Virus record (IMG/VR): IMGVR_UViG_3300032053_000047
Coordinates: 1 to 64,000 of that record
Length of the DNA: 64,000 nucleotides
Strand: one strand, 5' to 3'
Source: a virus
In this document: one piece after another, positions 3,657 to 62,232 of the stretch
Layout: each line of letters begins with the position of its first letter
Numbering within the stretch: the first letter of the stretch is position 1
Translations under genes and position numbers: made by a program
The notes under the pieces: generated by a model
The model's input: only the letters and a program-made list of their open reading frames with translations
Database searches by the model: none
Told to the model about the DNA's origin: nothing

Positions 3657-4250
3657 ATGGTAACAGGTAGTATCCCAAAAAAGAACCCCTATAATATCAA
3701 GGCTTTAGGCGACATTTCTCCTGATCCGAAAAATGCAAATCGTGGGACTGAACGCGGGCTCGGGATGCTGGAGCAGTCCTTGCGCACATACGGCGCGGGC
3801 CGGTCGATCCTATGCGACCGTCATGGGGTCTGTATCGCAGGAAATAAAACGTTAGAACGGGCTGCTGATATCGGCATGGACGTGGAGGTAGTCCAGAGCG
3901 ACGGCAAGCGGCTCGTGGTGGTACAGCGGACCGACTTGGACTTGGCGGAAGGCGGGGCCGCGCGTGAACTGGCCTATGCCGACAACCGGGCGGGGCAGGT
4001 TGGACTCGACTGGGACCCGGCAGTACTGGCAGCGGACCTTGCGGCGGGGATCGACTTGGACAAGTTCTGGTTGCCGGGGGAAATGGAATTGATCGGGCCA
4101 GAAAAAGAGTCGGAACCGCTGGATGCTTCGCCCCAACTTGGCGCACTGGAATACCGGATCATCGTGACGTGCCGGGACGAAGAACATCATGCCGAAGTCT
4201 TGTCGATGCTTCAAAAAGAAGGGCTTGAATGCAAAGTTTTGATATCGTAG
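3657..4250 (+). CDS. ParB-like N-terminal domain protein
   Basis: A 197-residue protein. Residues 15-110 follow the ParB/Srx fold: a statement of where other data lie (ISPDPKNANRGTERG), a middle GNKTLERAADIG in place of the usual G-hxR-hxA box, and an ELAYADNRAGQ segment. Phage ParB-like proteins of this class are often called nucleases, but activity is not shown by sequence. It overlaps the ABC-acetyltransferase gene by 22 bases, suggesting that the two products work together. Confidence 0.7.
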   Translation: MVTGSIPKKNPYNIKALGDISPDPKNANRGTERGLGMLEQSLRTYGAGRSILCDRHGVCIAGNKTLERAADIGMDVEVVQSDGKRLVVVQRTDLDLAEGGAARELAYADNRAGQVGLDWDPAVLAADLAAGIDLDKFWLPGEMELIGPEKESEPLDASPQLGALEYRIIVTCRDEEHHAEVLSMLQKEGLECKVLIS

Positions 4251-5356
4251 TCGAAAGCAACGTGTCCGCTTCTGCGCGGTGCAGACAACTAGAAGGCATG
4301 TTCGATGTGCCGCCGTCGAAACGATCGCGCCTACAGTTTAGTGGCGAGGTCGACCTCGACTCGCAATCGTGGAACGTGGGCCTGATTGTCGGGCCGTCCG
4401 GGGCGGGCAAGTCCACAATCGCTAAGCACTTGTTTCCCGCCGAGTATGGGCGCATTTACGAGTGGGGCAAACAGAGCGTTATAGACGACTTCTCAGAGAC
4501 GCTTTCGGTTGCGGACATATCGAGCGTATGTCAGGCGGTCGGGTTCAACACTATACCGGCGTGGCTACGCCCGTTTGCTGTGCTTTCCACTGGCGAGCGA
4601 TTCCGAGTGGAACTTGCCCGCAACCTTATCGAAGGCGGCGATCTCATTGTAATGGACGAATTCACGTCCGTTGTGGATCGGCAAGTCGCGCAGATCGGCG
4701 CGAACGCAGTCCAGAAATACGTGAGACGAAACGGAAAACGGTTTGTGGCCGTTTCGTGTCATAGTGACATTATCGATTGGCTACAACCCGACTGGATTTA
4801 CGAACCGGCCTTGTCCAGGTTCGTAAGGGGGTTAGTTCGGCGACGCCCAAGCATGGAGGTTGAAATCACAAGAGTCAGCTATGAAGCGTGGAAACTATTC
4901 GCTCCATTTCACTATCTGACGGCAGAACTAAACCGGGTGGCGAAATGTTTCGGCCTATGGATTGGCGGGCGCTTAACGTCCTTTGCTGGATTGCTCTGCC
5001 GCCCAACCAAGAAAGCGGATCTATGGGGTGTGAGTAGGCTTGTGACGCTACCAGACTGGCAGGGATTGGGATTGGCAATGATACTAGCGTGCAAGATGGG
5101 CGGGGCGCACAAAGCCATTGGCAAGCGGCTCCACATGTACCCGGCGCATCCGAGCCTTATACGATCGTTTGACAAATCGCCGGAATGGGCGCTCATAAAG
5201 AAGCCAGGAGAATTCAAGGGCAAGGAAAACCAAAAGGGGTTTAAAGCCATGAAGGGAAACCGCATAGATCCGAATAACGAGGGCCGTCCCTGTGCCGTGT
5301 TCGAATACTGCGGCCCGGCAATGGACCGGGCGGCGGCGGAGGCCCTACTTGCGTAA
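4229..5356 (+). CDS. ABC-type ATPase fused to a GNAT-like domain
   Basis: A 375-residue fusion. The N-terminal half is an ABC ATPase: Walker A GPSGAGKST (residues 55-63), signature LSTGERFRVELAR (from 119) and Walker B DLIVMDEF (138-145), followed by an SCHSD switch-like segment. Residues about 210-330 look like a GNAT acetyltransferase, with the RLVTLPDWQGLGLAMIL acetyl-CoA-binding stretch. The architecture matches COG2401 (ABC ATPase fused to a predicted acetyltransferase). No membrane segments are present, so it is not a transporter. Target unknown. Confidence 0.75.
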   Translation: MQSFDIVVESNVSASARCRQLEGMFDVPPSKRSRLQFSGEVDLDSQSWNVGLIVGPSGAGKSTIAKHLFPAEYGRIYEWGKQSVIDDFSETLSVADISSVCQAVGFNTIPAWLRPFAVLSTGERFRVELARNLIEGGDLIVMDEFTSVVDRQVAQIGANAVQKYVRRNGKRFVAVSCHSDIIDWLQPDWIYEPALSRFVRGLVRRRPSMEVEITRVSYEAWKLFAPFHYLTAELNRVAKCFGLWIGGRLTSFAGLLCRPTKKADLWGVSRLVTLPDWQGLGLAMILACKMGGAHKAIGKRLHMYPAHPSLIRSFDKSPEWALIKKPGEFKGKENQKGFKAMKGNRIDPNNEGRPCAVFEYCGPAMDRAAAEALLA

Positions 5357-7607: not shown

Positions 7608-8702
7608 ATGACTGCAACATCAAGCCCTATCGTAGATCCTGAATTTTCAAAACTCATTCCGCCGTTGACGCCAGAAGAGATTTCGCTTCTGGCCAACTCG
7701 TTGCTCGAAGACGGATGCCGCGATCCCCTTGTGGTGTGGGATGAAAAGTGCATTTTGCTTGACGGCCACAACCGCCTGCGCCTATGCCAAAAACATGGTA
7801 TTGAGTATCAGGTGGCCCGGTTGTCATTTTCAGATAGGGCGGCGGCGGAAACATGGATAATCCGCAATCAGTTAGGTCGCCGCAACCTCAGCCCCGACGC
7901 GGCCAGTTACCTGCGGGGACTCTTATACAACCGGGAGAAGAAAGCGGTTGGCAAGCCCAAAGGAACGATATTAGATCAAAATGATCCAATATCCACAGCC
8001 GAACGCTTAGCCAAAGAGCACGGAGTGTCCGCGCCGACGATCAAGCGTGACAGCCAATTCGCCAAGGCCGTGGAAACGCTCAAGCCCCACGTGGCCGATA
8101 TTGAACAGCGGGTTATGTCGGGCAATATTCCCGATAAGCAACGCATTATTGAGGCAGCAAAAACCCCGGAAAAAGCAGAAAAACTGCTTACTGAAAAGGT
8201 TGTGCATGTTTCACACAACAGCGGCGAGAATGAGTGGTACACGCCCGCACCTCTTGTTGAAGCGGCCCGCAAGACGATGGGCGGCATTGACTGCGATCCG
8301 GCGTCAAGCAAAATTGCAAACCAGACAATCAAGGCAAAAACCTTTTACACAAAAGACAATGATGGGCTCACCCAGAAATGGGCAGCTCGCGTATGGATGA
8401 ATCCCCCGTATGCGCAACCGCTCATCTCACAGTTTTCCGATGCACTTGTGAAGCGCTTTAAATCAGATGAAGTCAAGCAGGCGTGCGTGTTGGTAAACAA
8501 TGCAACGGAAACAGAGTGGTTTCAGACCATGCTTCGCGTGGCGAGTGCCGCCTGTTTTCTCAAGGGGCGCGTCCGCTTTATCGACCAAGAAGGCAACCCG
8601 TCTGGCGCTCCACTTCAGGGGCAGGCGATGCTTTATCTCGGCGGAAATATTGAACGGTTCAAAACGGAATGGTCACCGTTTGGGATTGTCCTTTTGCGAT
8701 GA
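7608..8702 (+). CDS. ParB-like domain fused to phage Dam-type adenine methyltransferase
   Basis: A 364-residue fusion. Residues 15-110 are ParB-like (EEISLLANSLLEDG, LLDGHNRLRLC). Residues 205-364 are a phage N6-adenine methyltransferase: EWYTPAPLV, DCDPAS (228-233), the catalytic NPPY (265-268), and the GRVRF...QGQAMLYLG end. It probably methylates adenine in phage DNA, perhaps against restriction. It overlaps the nuclease gene that follows (ATGA). Confidence 0.85.
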   Translation: MTATSSPIVDPEFSKLIPPLTPEEISLLANSLLEDGCRDPLVVWDEKCILLDGHNRLRLCQKHGIEYQVARLSFSDRAAAETWIIRNQLGRRNLSPDAASYLRGLLYNREKKAVGKPKGTILDQNDPISTAERLAKEHGVSAPTIKRDSQFAKAVETLKPHVADIEQRVMSGNIPDKQRIIEAAKTPEKAEKLLTEKVVHVSHNSGENEWYTPAPLVEAARKTMGGIDCDPASSKIANQTIKAKTFYTKDNDGLTQKWAARVWMNPPYAQPLISQFSDALVKRFKSDEVKQACVLVNNATETEWFQTMLRVASAACFLKGRVRFIDQEGNPSGAPLQGQAMLYLGGNIERFKTEWSPFGIVLLR

Positions 8703-9115
8703 CTGAACGCGGGAAAATATATAACCGTGAATATGCTGCGCAACTCCGGGATTTCTCGGGGTTGCGATACGGCAAAATTACCCCAACTGACATAGATGGT
8801 TTTATGGATTTTGGGGGCAAAGCGTTTGTTTTTATTGAAGCAAAATACGGCGATTCCGAAATGCCGTTTGGCCAGAAATTAGCACTTGAACGTCTTTGTG
8901 ATGCTTGTGATAAGGGCGGGATCAACGCGGTTGTCCTTGTCGCGTCACACAATACCAGGGAAGACATAGACTTTGCGGCGATGACCGTAACGATGGTTCG
9001 GCACAATGGGGTGTGGCGGCCGCCACGGCGAGAACTCACGGTTAGGCAAACAATAGACGCCTTTCTTGAATGGACTTCCGCCGCCAAACTTCCTAGATCT
9101 TCACCCTCCCGGTGA
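8699..9115 (+). CDS. PD-(D/E)XK nuclease-like protein
   Basis: A 138-residue protein with a nuclease core: TDIDGFMDFGGKAFVFIEAKYGD carries the D...ExK signature (catalytic D, then E and K), followed by GQKLALERLCD and a VVLVAS strand. Such small phage nucleases are found next to methyltransferases and terminases. The ATG at 8699 overlaps the methyltransferase stop (ATGA) and is preferred over 8669. Confidence 0.7.
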   Translation: MTERGKIYNREYAAQLRDFSGLRYGKITPTDIDGFMDFGGKAFVFIEAKYGDSEMPFGQKLALERLCDACDKGGINAVVLVASHNTREDIDFAAMTVTMVRHNGVWRPPRRELTVRQTIDAFLEWTSAAKLPRSSPSR

Positions 9116-21191: not shown

Positions 21192-21463
21192 CTGCAACAG
21201 AAATTAGCGCACTCAATGCGACCGTAGACAAAATCCTCGGGGTTCTACAGGGTGAACCCGGCGAAACGGGACTTGTCAGTGAAGTTAAGGCTATTGGGGT
21301 AGAACTCGCTCAGCAAGGAGTCCGCCTTGAAATACACCTAACGGCACACAAGGAATGCGATACTAAAAAAGAAACTCGCATGTGGGATATATTTAAGACC
21401 ATACTTATTCCGCTTGCCGCCGGACTAGTTAGCGCAGCCCTCGTAGTATGGGGTCTAAAATGA
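21188..21463 (+). CDS. Small membrane protein with C-terminal TM segment
   Basis: A 91-residue protein with an amphipathic N-terminal part and one C-terminal membrane span (TILIPLAAGLVSAALVVWGL). The layout resembles XhlA-type phage membrane proteins, though the true lysis genes appear to lie at 38-41 kb. ATGA overlaps couple it to both neighbours. Confidence 0.55.
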   Translation: MTATEISALNATVDKILGVLQGEPGETGLVSEVKAIGVELAQQGVRLEIHLTAHKECDTKKETRMWDIFKTILIPLAAGLVSAALVVWGLK

Positions 21464-23337
21464 GCGCCCAGCGGGGTCGCCCCAACCTGCCGCCCGACGT
21501 GACGCGCGCGCAACAGGAACTTATCCGGGCATACCGAAATGCTACCCGGCGGCTAGAACGGCAACTCTCAGGAGCCGCCCTTACGGATTTCCAGCGGTTC
21601 CGAATCACCGAACAGCTTCAACAGATCCGAGTTATCATTGCAGCCCTTAATCAACAGGCCCAGGATGCCGCACAGCGCATGATCGGCCCATCCTATAGGG
21701 TAGGGATCAAACTGTCCGCGGACGCCCTTGTACGGGCTGGTATCGAAGTGAATATGGGCAATGTATTGGCTACTGAGGCTATTGCGGTTGTTGCCGATCA
21801 AATGGCGATGGATCTTATTGCTGCGAATGCCAGTTTGGAAATACAGGCGCGGCGGTTTTTGCGGCTTACGCAACAAAAGTTGCTCACTGAACAACAGATT
21901 AACCAAGGGATCGCCCGAGGGATTATCGAAGGTGAAACCCGGAAACAGGTGAGCGACCGGCTGTTGAAGCAGCTTAAGGGGAAGATGGAAGAAGGCGCAC
22001 GGATCGTTATCAAGTGCAAGGATGGCAAACTCCGGTCCTACGACCCGGCCCAATATGCCGAACTTGTAGCACGCACGCGCACGCGGGAAGCCGTTACGCA
22101 GGGGACGATCCGCACCGGCATGGACTATGAAGTCTACCTATTTCAGGTATCCGTGCATTCCGGGGCGTGTGAGATGTGTATCCCGTTTCAGGGCAAAGTG
22201 TTTGCTATAGTTGACGGTACGGGGTATCCGATACTAAAGGAAAGCCCCCCGTTTCATCCGAACTGCATTTTGCCGGAAACGCCTGTCTTTGCCCCTGGTA
22301 AGCGGGCCGCATTTGTTGCCGCCTACAACGGCCCGGTAATCGATATTATTCTGTCCAATTCCGCAAGGGTGTCCGTCACCCCGAATCACATGCTCCTGAC
22401 CCCGACCGGGTTCGCTTTTGCAAAGGATCTTTGCGAGGGACAAGAGGTACTCTATAGCACCGCCTTTGAGAATGTAGTATTTGGACACCCAAATAATAAC
22501 AACCGTCCATCCTTCATCGCGGATATAGTCGAATCGCTTTCTAAAACGAGCGGCATGTGCTCCAGTAGCGTGCCAGCTACCTCCGAAGATTTCCACGGCG
22601 ATGGGCGGTTCGTTAATAGCGACATCAATGTTATATGGGCCAATGGCCTTTTGCGAAGTAATATCGAATCCAAATCGGGCGAGGTGCCGAGCGAGAACGA
22701 TTTCGATGGGACTGACATTGCTCTGTTTGGTCTCACGTGTTGTCGCACGACGGCAAAGATGCTCAAAACTTTGGCGCTTGCCGCGGACGGCATCATGGGC
22801 GGCTTTCGTGATGGCTGCGCGGCCCTCTGGCCCCATCTTCGCCATGGCAATTTTGGTGGCTTCGCTTCCAGTACGCTTCTTAATTTTACCCCTGCGGAGA
22901 ATTCCATCAATGACGCACTGAATTGTTCCGAATTCACGCATCAATTCTCCTACACTCTCTCCGGCACAATAGCGCGAGCAAATCTCATTCGCGGGCAACA
23001 ACAGTCCCGGCCTTTGATTTCTCTTGATGCCCCGCCTTTTCAGGATGCCGTTAACATCAACGGGAAATTGTTTCTTGATTTCCTTAAACGGAATTCTAGC
23101 CAAATAGGCGTTGCACACGTCGTCTTTAAGGGAATTCGGCAATATTCTGGGCATGTCTATGATCTCCAAACTGATTCATCATTATACCTATGTAATGGCA
23201 TAGTATCAAGTAATTGCGGCCATGTCCTAACTGCCTTTATCCCCCGCGACGACGAACAAAACACCGCCCTGCGCCAGTTTTCCCACACCCGGGGGGGCGT
23301 TGCAGATTATGAGGAATACCAGGCCGCAATAGCTTAA
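21460..23337 (+). CDS. MuF-like minor head protein interrupted by an intein
   Basis: A 625-codon frame. The exteins form a MuF-type head protein of about 308 residues: helical N-terminus, RTREAVTQGTIRTGM, then CEMCIPFQGKVF and the family signature FHPNC. The intein (residues 269-585) splits that signature exactly at HPN|C, and the C-extein is the last 40 residues beginning CGHVLTAF. The ATG at 21460 overlaps the preceding stop and is preferred over 21448. MuF proteins sit inside the head near the portal. Confidence 0.85.
   Translation: MSAQRGRPNLPPDVTRAQQELIRAYRNATRRLERQLSGAALTDFQRFRITEQLQQIRVIIAALNQQAQDAAQRMIGPSYRVGIKLSADALVRAGIEVNMGNVLATEAIAVVADQMAMDLIAANASLEIQARRFLRLTQQKLLTEQQINQGIARGIIEGETRKQVSDRLLKQLKGKMEEGARIVIKCKDGKLRSYDPAQYAELVARTRTREAVTQGTIRTGMDYEVYLFQVSVHSGACEMCIPFQGKVFAIVDGTGYPILKESPPFHPNCILPETPVFAPGKRAAFVAAYNGPVIDIILSNSARVSVTPNHMLLTPTGFAFAKDLCEGQEVLYSTAFENVVFGHPNNNNRPSFIADIVESLSKTSGMCSSSVPATSEDFHGDGRFVNSDINVIWANGLLRSNIESKSGEVPSENDFDGTDIALFGLTCCRTTAKMLKTLALAADGIMGGFRDGCAALWPHLRHGNFGGFASSTLLNFTPAENSINDALNCSEFTHQFSYTLSGTIARANLIRGQQQSRPLISLDAPPFQDAVNINGKLFLDFLKRNSSQIGVAHVVFKGIRQYSGHVYDLQTDSSLYLCNGIVSSNCGHVLTAFIPRDDEQNTALRQFSHTRGGVADYEEYQAAIA
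22234..23154 (-). CDS. Vsr-type homing endonuclease encoded antisense to the intein
   Basis: A 306-residue protein from ATG 23154, preceded by GGAG nine bases upstream. Two helix-turn-helix units occupy about residues 7-45 and 55-90, then a linker with PEGRAAITKAAHDAVRG. A Vsr/DUF559-type nuclease domain follows: PIEIVLARHL, YNIDVAI with the catalytic Asp, and AVEIFGGSWH with Glu and His. After it comes a tail of about 60 residues that is the complement of the intein N-terminal domain and runs 30 bases into the extein. It probably cuts intein-less MuF alleles. Confidence 0.8.
   Translation of the reverse strand: MPRILPNSLKDDVCNAYLARIPFKEIKKQFPVDVNGILKRRGIKRNQRPGLLLPANEICSRYCAGESVGELMREFGTIQCVIDGILRRGKIKKRTGSEATKIAMAKMGPEGRAAITKAAHDAVRGKRQSFEHLCRRATTRETKQSNVSPIEIVLARHLARFGFDITSQKAIGPYNIDVAINEPPIAVEIFGGSWHATGAHAARFRKRFDYIRDEGWTVVIIWVSKYYILKGGAIEYLLSLAKILCKSEPGRGQEHVIRGDGHPCGIGQNNIDYRAVVGGNKCGPLTRGKDRRFRQNAVRMKRGAFL
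22264..23214 (+). other. Intein in the MuF gene (sense strand)
   Basis: 317 codons from Cys1 to Asn. Block A is CILPETPVF; block B VSVTPNHMLLT with the TxxH pattern; block F YSGHVYDLQT; block G NGIVSSN followed by extein Cys+1. The penultimate residue is Ser, not the usual His. Between blocks B and F lie about 220 residues with no LAGLIDADG or HNH motifs. That stretch reads as the in-register complement of the endonuclease on the other strand. Confidence 0.85.
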
Positions 23338-23346
23338 GCGGGTTTG

Positions 23347-23375
23347 TGGACAACTCAGGAAAGGTATGATATACT
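23347..23375 (+). promoter_or_regulatory. Sigma-70-type promoter for the tRNA-like gene
   Basis: -35 TGGACA (23347-23352), 17-base spacer, -10 TATACT (23370-23375) with a preceding ATG A. The expected transcription start is near 23382, about 25 bases before the tRNA-like sequence. This is one of the best host-type promoters in the window and sits inside the late module. Confidence 0.6.
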
Positions 23376-23406
23376 ATTGCTGTGATTGGCTATGCCTGAC
23401 AAGCGT

Positions 23407-23503
23407 AAGGTCGTCGTCTAGCTGGCTTAGGACAGTTCCAAAAAGGCAGTTTGTCGCTGCTGAGTACCGAGAAAACGCGGGTCCGAATCCCGCCGACCAG
23501 CCA
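23407..23503 (+). tRNA. Atypical tRNA-like gene, identity unclear
   Basis: A D-arm in the style of Glu tRNAs (GTCT, loop with GG, GGAC at 23416-23433) and a good T-arm (GCGGG, TCCGAAT, CCCGC at 23477-23493) are present, and the 3' end CGACCAGCCA carries CCA. The acceptor pairs at only 5 of 7 positions. A GCAG/CTGC stem with a 7-base loop (23447-23461) could be the anticodon arm, reading UGU, but is displaced by about 11 bases. Possibly degenerate or specialised. Confidence 0.4.
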
Positions 23504-23559
23504 TCACTCGCTTGCTTGAAAGCGATTTCCGCAATAACCTAACCCGCCTTTACCCAATC

Positions 23560-50463: not shown

Positions 50464-50520
50464 CCTCCTTCCGCCGCGAGCCGGGGCGCGGAGTAGTACC
50501 CCGGCATAGAATTGAACTGT

Positions 50521-50593
50521 AGTCGTGTAGCGCAATAGGTAGAGCGCGGCGCTGTTAACGCCGAGGTTGTAGGTTCGAGTCCTACCGCGACTG
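50521..50593 (+). tRNA. tRNA-Asn (GUU)
   Basis: Acceptor AGTCGTG/CGCGACT, anticodon stem CGGCG/CGCCG with loop CTGTTAA (anticodon GUU), T-arm GTAGG, TTCGAGT, CCTAC. All standard apart from a mismatch in the D-stem. No CCA is encoded. TTGAAC lies three bases upstream of its 5' end. Confidence 0.85.
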
Positions 50594-50618
50594 TTAAAAG
50601 TTGAAGAACCGATCCCCG

Positions 50619-50716
50619 GTGTGCCGCTGGGCACGTTCATCCTCACCATCCAACCCAGTAGCCGATTCACTCAGATAGGGACGCGCCACCCTCGCGTCCC
50701 ATGCTCAGCGGCACAC
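50619..50716 (+). ncRNA. Structured RNA with 10-bp terminal stem
   Basis: GTGTGCCGCT (50619-50628) pairs perfectly with AGCGGCACAC (50707-50716). Inside, GGGACGCG/CGCGTCCC (50678-50700) forms an 8-bp hairpin with a 7-base loop. TTGAAG lies 12 bases before the 5' strand. There is no T-loop sequence, so it is not a normal tRNA. Unknown class. Confidence 0.5.
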
Positions 50717-50740
50717 TATAAAAATTGAATAGCTTTTTGA

Positions 50741-50802
50741 TGTGCTGGGAAATGGTATAGCGGAGTTTGATAGTAAACAGGTTTCGATTCCTGCCAGCAC
50801 AT
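50741..50802 (+). ncRNA. Minimal tRNA-like RNA (62 nt)
   Basis: TGTGCTG pairs perfectly with CAGCACA, and the flanks extend the helix to about 13 bp. A T-arm-like CAGG, TTTCGATT, CCTG is present but has one extra loop base. The middle has a GTTT/AAAC stem with a 6-base loop. It is about 12 nt shorter than a normal tRNA; no anticodon can be assigned with confidence. ATTGAATAG lies upstream. Confidence 0.5.
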
Positions 50803-50973
50803 CGAGTTTGCGAGGATGTCACCGGGATTACCCGATGGCATTTCCGCAAAGTGGCGTCACCTGCCGTGCTCCGTTTATGCCTAGGCTGAGCGAAGTGGTG
50901 AGGGAACGCCGCCAGACTAGGCGTGACTTAATGCCACGGTTCAGAGTAACCGAGGCGAAGAAATTGAATAGTT

Positions 50974-51167
50974 CTTGATGTGTTGCGGCGTGGTGGGACA
51001 CGCTAAAAGGCGGCAACGACCGGCTAGAACCACAAAGGGGTAGTGACCCTTTCGATTGTCGGTAAGTAGGTGAGCTACTTGTAAGACGAGCGCGGAAAGT
51101 GCCGATATTGACCCGCGCATGTGGAACCGAACAAACGGGCAGGTTCAAATCCTGCCAGCGCATCGAG
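50974..51167 (+). ncRNA. tRNA-capped RNA with a large insert
   Basis: CTTGATGTGTTG (50974-50985) pairs with CAGCGCATCGAG (51156-51167) using only wobbles as exceptions. A D-arm-like GCGTG/CACGC (50988-51003) and a canonical T-arm GCAGG, TTCAAAT, CCTGC (51139-51155) are in place. Between them are about 135 nt in place of the anticodon arm, with AAAGGG/CCCTTT, AAGTAG/CTACTT and GCGCGG/CCGCGC hairpins. tmRNA has a like plan, but none of its conserved 5' sequence is present. Confidence 0.5.
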
Positions 51168-51258
51168 TTTTTGCCCGCCGAATGAGGGCAGTAGAACGCG
51201 AGAGAGGAGGTGGTCCGCGAGACGGCTAAGCGGACCCCATGACACAGTTGAATCTGAT

Positions 51259-51360
51259 CTTTGGCGTGCTACCGGCTACCCTTGCGGAACATGCGCGAAC
51301 CCTGCGGACTGTCTAGACAGCGCCGTAGCAAGTATGCACTAACGGTTTAGCACACCAAAG
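51259..51360 (+). ncRNA. Structured RNA with 13-bp terminal stem
   Basis: CTTTGGCGTGCTA (51259-51271) pairs with TAGCACACCAAAG (51348-51360), one mismatch. A CTGT/ACAG palindrome sits in the middle. No T-loop. TTGAATC lies five bases upstream, and TTTTTG follows, so transcription could stop there. Confidence 0.5.
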
Positions 51361-51482
51361 TTTTTGCGGCCTGTGATGCCGCGAGCGGCGACACCAAGGA
51401 TTCAATCTAGCCGCATAGTGCGTGCGGTGCCGGGTTTGTGGAAACTTTCCCGGCACCGCCCTCCCCAACGAAAGGAGAACTA

Positions 51483-51839
51483 ATGTTCAGGTTAACGACA
51501 AACGACGATACTGTTGTGTTTCAGGTCCCGTGTGGAGAGGGAACTATCCGCTTTGAATGTTATTGCGGAAGCGGAGGCGCTGCATTAGTCGTTGCTAATG
51601 CACTTCGCAATGCCCATCCGGTTCTCTTCGACACCATTGAAACGGAACCCCATGTGTTAAAAAGTGAAGGGGATTGGCTACGTGAACGGTTACATGAAGT
51701 ACAGACGAAAATGGATCGTGCCGTGGCGGAGATACGCGATTTGGAGAAGATAGCGAAAAATACATCACCTATCCCTACACTTCAAGAATTTGGATTGTTT
51801 CGAGACGCCGTGTTCGCGGCGGTGAAAAGAATCGAATAG
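51483..51839 (+). CDS. Hypothetical protein within the RNA region
   Basis: A 118-residue protein with strands in the first 50 residues (TVVFQVPCGEGTIRFECYCG) and a coiled coil in the second half. AAAGGAGAA precedes ATG 51483. The only protein gene inside the 2-kb RNA region. Not recognised. Confidence 0.6.
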   Translation: MFRLTTNDDTVVFQVPCGEGTIRFECYCGSGGAALVVANALRNAHPVLFDTIETEPHVLKSEGDWLRERLHEVQTKMDRAVAEIRDLEKIAKNTSPIPTLQEFGLFRDAVFAAVKRIE

Positions 51840-51858
51840 TTACCAAAGTTGAATTCGT

Positions 51859-51947
51859 GGGCGAGTGGCGAAATTGGCAAACGCAGCGGACTTAAAATCC
51901 GCTACCCCGGCCAGGGGTTTTTGTAGGTTCGAGTCCTGCCTCGCCCA
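51859..51947 (+). tRNA. tRNA-Leu (UAA)
   Basis: Acceptor GGGCGAG/CTCGCCC, D-arm GCG...CGC, anticodon stem GCGGA/TCCGC with loop CTTAAAA (anticodon UAA), a long variable arm (CCCC...GGGG) as expected for Leu, and T-arm GTAGG, TTCGAGT, CCTGC. 89 nt; CCA not encoded. TTGAAT ends four bases before the mature 5' end. Confidence 0.9.
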
Positions 51948-52017
51948 TCTTATGAATTATTAAACTATTAGGTTTTGGCTAATAGTTGCCCCGGAGAGTA
52001 CGGGTATACAGTTGAAT

Positions 52018-52362
52018 ATTTTTAGGTGTGCTGTGGCCGAAGGAATGCGTGACGGGCGCGAGAAATCGCGTTGGTAGTGCGACGACGGCCCCAACGGTCG
52101 GCTCAATGATGGAGTAAGGAACAAACCCCTAGAGCAGCAAGCAGGTCAGCCGGGCGCGGGTGATTTTACCCGTAATGACAGTACAGGCCGAGATAATCGC
52201 CTGATAGCCATAGTATACCGATTTCCCAGCAGCGACCTTGCGGGGCCGTGCGGTGACATGGCGTAGCTCTCCCATAGAGAACGTCATGGCATCGTTACAT
52301 CAACCCGTTCCGGTTCTATCACGGCTGAGGCCGGACGCCGCTCGGATAACAGTTGACGGGTA
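52018..52362 (+). ncRNA. Long structured noncoding RNA candidate
   Basis: No ORF is supported here. After TTGAATA (52012) comes GTGTGCTGTGGCCGAAGG, which looks like the 5' half of a class II tRNA. Then follow a CGCGA-GAAA-TCGCG hairpin, CGGGT/ACCCG, and TCTC/GAGA hairpins. It might be one RNA with the element at 52363-52476. Large phage RNAs such as GOLLD and ROOL also lie near tRNAs, but I cannot match their cores by eye. Confidence 0.4.
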
Positions 52363-52476
52363 TCGGCGGATGTCCCAATGGCACTGTCCAGGAACAGTGG
52401 TCGGGCTTCGTGCGGTGCGTCCCTGGCGGGTGCGTGGGGTTCGATTCCCCAACGCACAGAATGCAGCATCCGCCGA
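52363..52476 (+). ncRNA. tRNA-like RNA with 10-bp terminal stem and T-arm
   Basis: TCGGCGGATG (52363-52372) pairs perfectly with CATCCGCCGA (52467-52476). Inside are CACTGT/ACAGTG and a canonical T-arm TGGGG, TTCGATT, CCCCA followed by ACGCACA. GTTGAC lies ten bases upstream. The T-arm is thus buried within a larger closed structure. GTTTT follows the terminal stem. Confidence 0.45.
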
Positions 52477-52538
52477 GTTTTAGCGATGCCAAGGAGCGGG
52501 TCAACAGCGGCCCGCCCCCGCAAAGAAAGGAAAATGAT

Positions 52539-58632: not shown

Positions 58633-58696
58633 CAACAATGCCCGGCGCACGGATGCGCGGGCTTGGGGGCAGGGACGCCGAATGCGGGGAGTTGAT

Positions 58697-59377
58697 ATGC
58701 AGATTAAAAGCCGATGGAATGGCGAAGTACTGTATGAATGTGAGGCCGATAGTCTAATCGAGGTTGTCATTAAGGCCGTAGAAGCGGAGGCCAACCTCGC
58801 GGGGGCCAACCTCGCGAGGGCCGACCTCACGAGGGCCGACCTCACGAGGGCCGACCTCGCGGGGGCCAACCTCACGAGGGCCGACCTCACGAGGGCCAAC
58901 CTCACGGAGGCCGACCTCGCGGGGGCCAACCTCGCGGAGGCCAACCTCACGAGGGCCGACCTCGCGAGGGCCAACCTCGCGGGGGCCGACCTCACGAGGG
59001 CCTACCTCGCGAGGGCCGACCTCACGAGGGCCAACCTCGCGGGGGCCGACCTCACGGGGGCCGAGTTACCACATTTCCAAATCTGTCCTGAAGTCGGTAG
59101 TTTTATCGGCTTCAAAAAGCTAGACAACGGCATAATTGCCACACTATTGATCCCAGACGGTGCGCGGCGTATGACGCCGCTCGGTTATCGGAAATGCCGG
59201 GCTGAACGTGTGCGTGTATTAAGCGGCAATGGCAAAAGTCCAACCGCCAATACCAAACTGGAATACCGCGAGGGCGACATGGTTGAGGCGGACTCGTTTG
59301 ATGATGATATCCGGGTCGAATACAGCCACGGGATCGCGTTTTTTGTGACGCGGAAGGAAGCTGAGGAGTGGATATGA
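58697..59377 (+). CDS. Pentapeptide-repeat protein with DUF5758-like C-terminus
   Basis: A 226-residue protein. Residues about 30-120 are some 18 tandem pentapeptides ([15 protein letters not shown]), forming a right-handed quadrilateral helix. The DNA repeats every 15 bases (GCCGACCTCACGAGG). The C-terminal domain ([45 protein letters not shown]) matches DUF5758. Pentapeptide proteins can mimic DNA and bind gyrase. GGGGAG precedes ATG 58697. Confidence 0.8.
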
Positions 59378-61548: not shown

Positions 61549-62232
61549 ATGGATATTTTTAGAATCAAGAGTATTAGTGACTTTGAGCAATTCAAAACTG
61601 AAATCGGCTACCACGTGAAAGGACATCTGAAAATCGAATGTCCTATCTCACTCTGTGGATCGTTAATCGTTGATGGGTCCATCCATGCGGGCGAGTCCAT
61701 CAAGGCGGGCGGGTTCATCGAGGCGGGCAGGTCCATCCATGCGGGCGAGTTCATCAAGGCGGGCAGGTTCATCAAGGCGGGCGGGTTCATCGAGGCGGGC
61801 AGGTCCATCCATGCGGGCGAGTCCATCAAGGCGGGCGGGTTCATCGAGGCGGGCAGGTTCATCAAGGCGGGCGGGTTCATCGAGGCGGGCGGGTTCATCG
61901 AGGCGGGCGGGTCGATCCAGGCGCATGAGTCCATCCATGCGGGCGAGTACATCCATGCGGGCGGGTTTGTGTTTTCCTTCACCTTCTCTTTGTCCTGTAA
62001 GTGGCTTGAAACGCGCCTACTGCCGTTTTGGCGCGAATTCTATGCAACTATGCCACCGTTGCAAAAGTGGCGAGACAAGATTCTCAGCAAATCTTCTTGT
62101 TGGGGTGATCTACAAACATTAGTCACGCCTGATGAGGCTATGACTATCTGTGCATGGGATGGCTGGCATCCAATCATTAAGGCGCAACTGGAAATGTTTT
62201 TCGGTCTCAAAAAGCGCGTTGACTTTACCTAA
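61549..62232 (+). CDS. Hexapeptide-repeat protein
   Basis: A 227-residue protein. Residues about 43-140 are tandem units of six residues (SIHAGE, SIKAGG, FIEAGR, FIKAGG), coded by 18-base DNA repeats. Such repeats should build a beta-helix. Ends: an N-terminal cap and a 90-residue C-terminal domain (WLETRLLPFWREFYATMPP). Similar phage repeat proteins exist with no known role. Confidence 0.75.
   Translation: MDIFRIKSISDFEQFKTEIGYHVKGHLKIECPISLCGSLIVDGSIHAGESIKAGGFIEAGRSIHAGEFIKAGRFIKAGGFIEAGRSIHAGESIKAGGFIEAGRFIKAGGFIEAGGFIEAGGSIQAHESIHAGEYIHAGGFVFSFTFSLSCKWLETRLLPFWREFYATMPPLQKWRDKILSKSSCWGDLQTLVTPDEAMTICAWDGWHPIIKAQLEMFFGLKKRVDFT

What the first reader, a model, noticed from the sequence alone, without database searches (positions are those of the whole stretch)
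50464..52538. Two-kilobase cluster of atypical tRNA-like and long-stem RNAs
Alongside ordinary tRNA-Asn and tRNA-Leu lie at least five other units with 10-13 bp terminal stems: 50619-50716, 50741-50802 (a 62-nt tRNA-like RNA), 50974-51167 (acceptor, D-like and T arms around a 135-nt insert), 51259-51360, and 52363-52476 (T-arm inside a larger stem), plus a long structured stretch 52018-52362 with a GNRA hairpin. None fits a known class that I can recognise; tmRNA, GOLLD and ROOL are the nearest ideas.
Basis: partly seen in the sequence, partly recalled or inferred. Interest (0 to 1): 0.8.

Follow-up and report, generated by a model that had tools for sequence, protein, structure and literature searches.

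The report
Phage tRNA cluster with unclassified RNAs
A temperate phage carries, between two ordinary tRNA genes and just after them, at least six other structured RNAs of no known family that share the same start signal, most of them with a related closing stem; one is kept almost unchanged in a related phage that has no detectable tRNAs, so these look like real RNA genes of unknown job, comparable to two RNAs in phage T4 that have no known function.

Summary
In 50464-52538 two ordinary tRNAs lie with six non-tRNA units (U2, U3, U4, U5, U7, U8). All eight have TTGA 8-17 nt upstream of their first helix (seven TTGAA). Five non-tRNA units (U2, U3, U4, U5, U7) share a closing helix, GGTGTGCTG...CAGCACACC, that varies by compensating changes. 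That phage has no detectable tRNA and keeps a U2-like unit next to U7. No unit matches any Rfam 15 family. U4 has a 7-bp acceptor and a perfect T-arm around a long insert, the layout of T4 species 1 RNA (RNAC), whose function is unknown. Most likely these are stable RNAs cut from one + strand transcript together with the tRNAs, with constant ends and differing interiors. What they do is inferred only. Transcription was not testable, only one relative was found, and the interiors are not shown to be homologous. Rated a new variant of a known kind.

The parts
50520..50594 (+). tRNA-Asn (GTT); leader TTGAAC starts 8 nt upstream
   Evidence: ARAGORN and Rfam tRNA 65.2 bits; leader
50618..50717 (+). 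U2: long-stem RNA, 16-bp closing helix, pyrimidine-rich single-stranded interior, 8-bp hairpin before the 3' strand; leader TTGAAG at 50601
   Evidence: fold z -5.3; helix; same layout as unit gA in the related phage
50736..50806 (+). U3: short RNA with 13-bp closing helix and degenerate T-arm; leader TTGAAT at 50725
   Evidence: fold z -4.5; picked up by the U7 covariance model, 20.2 bits, E 2.8e-7 in the 1.4-kb stretch
50810..50847 (+). hairpin in the spacer between U3 and U4 (spacer 50807-50960 may hold a further RNA)
   Evidence: sequence inspection; sliding-window z about -2.7
50974..51167 (+). U4: tRNA-like RNA, 12-bp closing helix that contains a 7-bp acceptor (50979-50985/51156-51162), T-arm 51139-51155, long insert where the anticodon arm would be; leader TTGAAT at 50964
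   Evidence: T-arm and acceptor scan; fold z -3.8; U7 model at the exact boundaries
51259..51360 (+). U5: long-stem RNA, 13-bp closing helix with one C.A mismatch; leader TTGAAT at 51248
   Evidence: helix; U7 model 5.5 bits; fold z only -1.1
51483..51839 (+). small protein gene (118 aa, no Pfam or PHROG match) inside the RNA cluster
   Evidence: ORF with Shine-Dalgarno AAAGGAG
51858..51949 (+). tRNA-Leu (TAA); leader TTGAAT starts 9 nt upstream
   Evidence: ARAGORN and Rfam tRNA 60.3 bits
52010..52024 (+). leader of U7, AGTTGAATATTTTTA
   Evidence: conserved block begins exactly here
52025..52219 (+). U7: 195-nt structured RNA, 13-bp closing helix (52025-52037/52207-52219), GAAA-capped hairpin 52055-52072, hairpin 52156-52173
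   Evidence: 89% identical to G001:42433-42651 with five short frame-breaking indels; three G.U closing pairs become G-C there
52287..52491 (+). outer 11-bp helix (52287-52297/52481-52491) that encloses U8
52363..52476 (+). U8: RNA with 11-bp closing helix and a perfect internal T-arm (52435-52451); leader TTGACG at 52353
   Evidence: weak, insignificant match to the mascRNA tRNA-like family, E 1.3

Best explanation
This is a polycistronic array of stable RNAs on the + strand of a temperate phage: two tRNAs plus at least six non-tRNA RNAs. Each unit is preceded by a TTGA(A) leader element in an A-rich context, and five of the six non-tRNA units are closed by a related helix. Proposed working (inferred): one long transcript is cut at each leader. 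The acceptor-like closing helix, with a T-arm in U4 and U8, marks the 5' end for the host tRNA-maturation enzymes (RNase P type) and protects the released RNA from exonucleases. The interiors are different folded cargoes that act in trans during infection. Mimicry or decoying of tRNA-binding or tRNA-cutting host factors is the most likely single role, because the units travel with tRNAs and imitate tRNA ends. Shown here: leader, helix and its covariation, T-arms, conservation of U7, absence from Rfam. Inferred: transcription, processing, stability, target.
For: Shared leader in 8 of 8 units including both real tRNAs. Closing helix of five units plus two units of the related phage: 98.4% of cells paired, 4 of 9 pairs changed on both sides, 0 of 500 shuffles reach the covariation score (the seven rows are related and few). 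A covariance model built only from the two U7 copies finds U3, U4 and U5 at their exact boundaries. U7 is conserved at 89% with single-base indels, so it is kept as RNA, not protein. The conserved block starts at the leader and ends just after the trailer, while the neighbouring protein genes differ. The related phage keeps U7 and a U2-like unit without any detectable tRNA. U4 has the layout of T4 species 1 RNA, which is expressed.
Against: No transcript data. Only one relative carries U7; three motif scans of IMG/VR and a model search of 35 related records found no other. The interiors of the units are not demonstrably homologous to one another. U5 and the U7-U8 stretch are not unusually stable as nested folds. 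The host is unknown. No direct evidence links any unit to RNase P or to a tRNA-binding target.
Confidence: 0.55

Rival explanations
1. Decaying tRNA genes and structured spacer DNA: the units are remnants of a once larger tRNA cluster, with no present function.
For: U3 has a degenerate T-arm and no anticodon; most units are found in one genome only.
Against: U7 at 89% identity and the U2-like unit persist in a phage with no detectable tRNA; closing helices are kept by compensating changes; U3 keeps a 13-bp helix without mismatch.
Confidence: 0.17
2. Cis-acting elements: the repeated leader and helix act in the transcript itself (antitermination, transcript stabilisation, cleavage sites) to protect a structured, poorly translated operon, and the interiors are incidental.
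For: The leader and closing helix are the shared parts while the interiors differ; tRNAs carry the same leader.
Against: U7's interior is conserved at about 90% including apparently unpaired stretches, which a pure closing element would not need.
Confidence: 0.15
3. Regulatory antisense RNAs: the single-stranded loops (for example CCUCAC in U2 and gA) bind ribosome-binding sites of phage or host messages.
For: U2 and gA share a pyrimidine-rich single-stranded loop that contains CCUCAC.
Against: No phage start region pairs with either loop better than with shuffled loops, apart from the U2 gene's own complement; host targets not testable.
Confidence: 0.08

Closest known systems
T4 species 1 and 2 RNA (RNAC, RNAD), in the T4 tRNA cluster
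   Same: Encoded among phage tRNAs; 119-139 nt; RNAC has an acceptor-like helix next to a perfect T-arm around a long structured insert, as U4 does; function unknown (PMC3014915, PMC9697503).
   Different: No sequence similarity beyond tRNA parts. T4 has two such RNAs; here there are at least six, with a shared leader and mostly a shared closing helix. U2, U5 and U7 have no T-arm.
GOLLD and ROOL RNAs
   Same: Large structured RNAs of phages and prophages, often near tRNA islands, function unknown (PMC12286853).
   Different: No Rfam match; units are 70-195 nt, whereas many GOLLD RNAs exceed 800 nt.
Phage M3 RNA and phage C4 antisense RNA, RNase P substrates
   Same: Small phage RNAs processed by RNase P (listed in PMC11143913).
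   Different: No sequence comparison made here; processing of these units is untested.
tmRNA
   Same: Acceptor and T-arm ends around an insert (U4).
   Different: No ARAGORN or Rfam call, no tag reading frame.
mascRNA and menRNA (tRNA-like)
   Same: Weak resemblance of the U8 T-arm and its neighbouring helix.
   Different: E 1.3, 16.6 bits against a 42.5-bit cut-off: not a match.

Membership tests
tRNA (RF00005), for U3, U4 and U8 | score above the family cut-off; four arms with anticodon | tested here: not met
   Only 50521-50593 and 51859-51947 match
tmRNA | detected by ARAGORN or Rfam | tested here: not met
tmRNA | tag reading frame that ends in a degradation tag | tested here: not met
   no such frame in U4 or U7
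GOLLD / ROOL | covariance-model match | tested here: not met
   none at E<=1 over the cluster or E<=10 over sub-stretches
group I intron | covariance-model match | tested here: not met
T4 species 1/2-like phage stable RNAs (a kind, not a sequence family) | encoded within a phage tRNA cluster | tested here: met
T4 species 1/2-like phage stable RNAs (a kind, not a sequence family) | acceptor-like helix adjacent to a T-arm around a long insert | tested here: met
   U4 only: 7/7 acceptor pairs and perfect T-arm; T4 RNAC fold. Not met by U2, U5 and U7.
T4 species 1/2-like phage stable RNAs (a kind, not a sequence family) | sequence homology to RNAC or RNAD | tested here: not met
   only matches from the two tRNAs and short 12-13-nt chance matches
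T4 species 1/2-like phage stable RNAs (a kind, not a sequence family) | accumulates as a discrete stable RNA during infection | not testable with these tools
   needs northern blot or small-RNA sequencing

The most novel reading that the evidence does not exclude
A phage RNA cassette system: a constant leader and closing helix frame exchangeable RNA cargoes, some ending in a tRNA-like T-arm, so that a phage can collect and swap trans-acting RNAs (tRNA decoys or anti-defence RNAs) in its tRNA cluster. T4 RNAC would be a distant example of the same idea.
Probability: 0.25. Interest if true: 0.85.

Novelty: new variant of a known kind. Interest (0 to 1): 0.6.

Why it matters
Two stable RNAs in the T4 tRNA cluster are still listed as of unknown function. 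Here is an independent phage with at least six such RNAs with common starts, and one (U7) conserved in a second phage without detectable tRNAs. That separates these RNAs from tRNA supply as such, gives a defined 195-nt RNA to test, and gives a recognisable signature (leader plus closing helix) with which to look for more in other phages.

Tried and rejected
Known RNA families: Rfam 15 over the whole window and, at permissive thresholds, the cluster and the homologous stretch; nothing convincing but tRNA. tmRNA: no tag frame. More U7 homologues: 'phages', 'plasmids' and 'E. coli genomes' collections, three motif scans of IMG/VR whose extra hits, where inspected or aligned, looked like coding DNA by chance, 41 phages that carry the same ATPase gene, a covariance model over 35 records: only G001. 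The first viral scan with the 316-aa downstream protein, the capsid scan, and a 92-aa protein conserved in G001 brought in no new phage. Full-length homology between U4 and U7 interiors: not robust to alignment settings. Antisense pairing of U2 and gA loops with phage start regions: no better than shuffles. sigma70 promoters at each unit: no convincing + strand site at the cluster. Integron attC sites (GTTGAAT fits GTTRRRY): rejected by eye, because no RYYYAAC partner was seen before the leaders and several of them read ATTGAA. Host identification: terminase, integrase and ATPase relatives are too distant and scattered.

Full report
What is there. The window is most of a 72,989-base virus record that carries terminase, capsid and integrase genes, so probably a temperate tailed phage, of unknown host. 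In 50464-52538 ARAGORN and Rfam see two ordinary tRNAs and nothing else. The rest of the stretch is not empty. Six further units (U2, U3, U4, U5, U7, U8; coordinates in 'parts') have closing helices of 11-16 bp. The 2-kb stretches that overlap the region have the lowest mean folding z-scores of the window, although the effect is moderate and some units are unremarkable as free folds.

Evidence that the units are a set. All eight units, including the two real tRNAs, have TTGA 8-17 nt upstream of the first helix, and seven have TTGAA. In 300 random sets of eight positions no 4-mer was shared by more than five and no 5-mer by more than four. A scan of the whole genome for TTGA followed by a strong helix gave seven + strand hits, five of them in this cluster; in the related phage the best + strand hit is U7. 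The closing helices of U2, U3, U4, U5 and U7, with two from the related phage, align without gaps: 98.4% of cells are paired, four of nine pairs changed on both sides, and no shuffle reached the covariation score. The rows are few and related, and they were laid out by hand as helix strands, so this is support, not proof. A covariance model made only from the two copies of U7 finds U3, U4 and U5 at their exact ends; with default filters U4 is also the best non-self match in 160 kb, at an E-value (0.42) that means nothing alone. Six perfect T-arms on the + strand against 0.4 expected, four of them in the cluster, mark U4 and U8 as tRNA-like at that point.

Evidence from a relative. A terminase search found IMGVR_UViG_3300031885_000003 (82,853 bases, called G001 here). 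It is a mosaic relative: many shared blocks lie in similar order, and protein genes range from 97% identical to unrelated. Of the whole RNA cluster only U7 is shared by sequence, at 89% over 225 bases, plus a 43-base piece before the next gene. The shared block starts at the leader AGTTGAA and ends a few bases after the trailer CGATTT. It has several one- or two-base indels that break reading frames, and three G.U closing pairs of the window are G-C in G001. Directly before U7, G001 has a unit (gA, about L012:9350-9426) with the layout of U2: closing helix GGTGCGCCGCC/GGCGGCGCACC, pyrimidine-rich loop, and a short hairpin before the 3' strand. G001 has no tRNA that ARAGORN or Rfam can find, so U7 and the U2-like unit are kept without tRNAs. 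No third phage with U7 was found in the collections available, and records very near the window's own may be hidden by the tools.

How it most likely works. Shown: leader, helices, T-arms, conservation, absence from Rfam. Inferred: the units and tRNAs are made as one + strand transcript (no good promoter at each unit; a protein gene with a Shine-Dalgarno sequence sits in the middle), cut at the leaders, and trimmed and protected through the acceptor-like closing helix, as tRNA precursors are. The interiors then act in trans. A tRNA mimic or decoy is the most natural single guess, because phage tRNAs are known to evade retrons and other defence systems (PMC11555353), but nothing here tests it. 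A pure cis role of the repeated frame and plain decay of tRNAs are the main rivals.

Known relatives in kind. T4 has two stable RNAs in its tRNA cluster, species 1 (RNAC, 139 nt) and species 2 (RNAD, 119 nt). RNAC folds with a perfect T-arm (CCGGG UUCGAAU CCCGG) next to an acceptor-like helix and a long structured insert, which is the layout of U4. Both are classed as late RNAs and have no known function (PMC9697503, PMC3014915). There is no sequence similarity. GOLLD and ROOL also lie near tRNA islands (PMC12286853) but are far larger and do not match. RNase P is known to process small phage RNAs (M3 RNA, C4 RNA; PMC11143913). The cluster is therefore filed as a new variant of a known kind: phage tRNA-cluster RNAs, here in an array with common ends.

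Limits. No expression data, one relative, host unknown, and interiors of different units not shown to be homologous. U8 and U5 rest on weaker evidence than U7, U2, U3 and U4.

Noticed in passing
23347-23505 (+): A further tRNA-like RNA outside the given stretch: a sigma70-like promoter (TGGACA, 17 nt, TATACT at 23347-23375) followed by a tRNA-Glu-like D-arm sequence (TCGTCTAGCTGGCTTAGGACA), a 5-bp helix GGTCG/CGACC and a perfect T-arm (GCGGG TCCGAAT CCCGC, 23477-23493), with terminator-like hairpins downstream. Not called by ARAGORN or Rfam, fold z near 0, and no match in G001 or eight other records.
   Followed up: partly
21448-23337 (+) and 22234-23169 (-): A head-morphogenesis gene (Phage_Mu_F / minor capsid) interrupted by an intein-like domain; on the opposite strand inside it lies a 311-aa ORF with a restriction-endonuclease-like domain (MTES_1575, E 2e-9, just under its cut-off): possibly an antisense-encoded homing endonuclease.
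   Followed up: partly
4229-5356 (+): ABC-type ATPase protein with what looks like a C-terminal acetyltransferase part (a guess from memory), 97% identical in G001 and related to proteins encoded at 52 IMG/VR loci from many phages.
   Followed up: partly
58682-59377 (+); 61549-62232 (+): Pentapeptide-repeat protein with DUF5758, and a second gene with AGGFIEAG-type internal repeats.
   Followed up: no
both ends of the 72,989-base record: Bases 85-311 and the last ~170 bases match the same G001 segment (from 53853) at 94-98% but no exact terminal repeat was found: a diverged repeat or a near-complete circular genome.
   Followed up: no
8701-8820 (+): Strongest single folding signal of the window (z -5.9), at the start of an ORF that begins at about 8700.
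   Followed up: no
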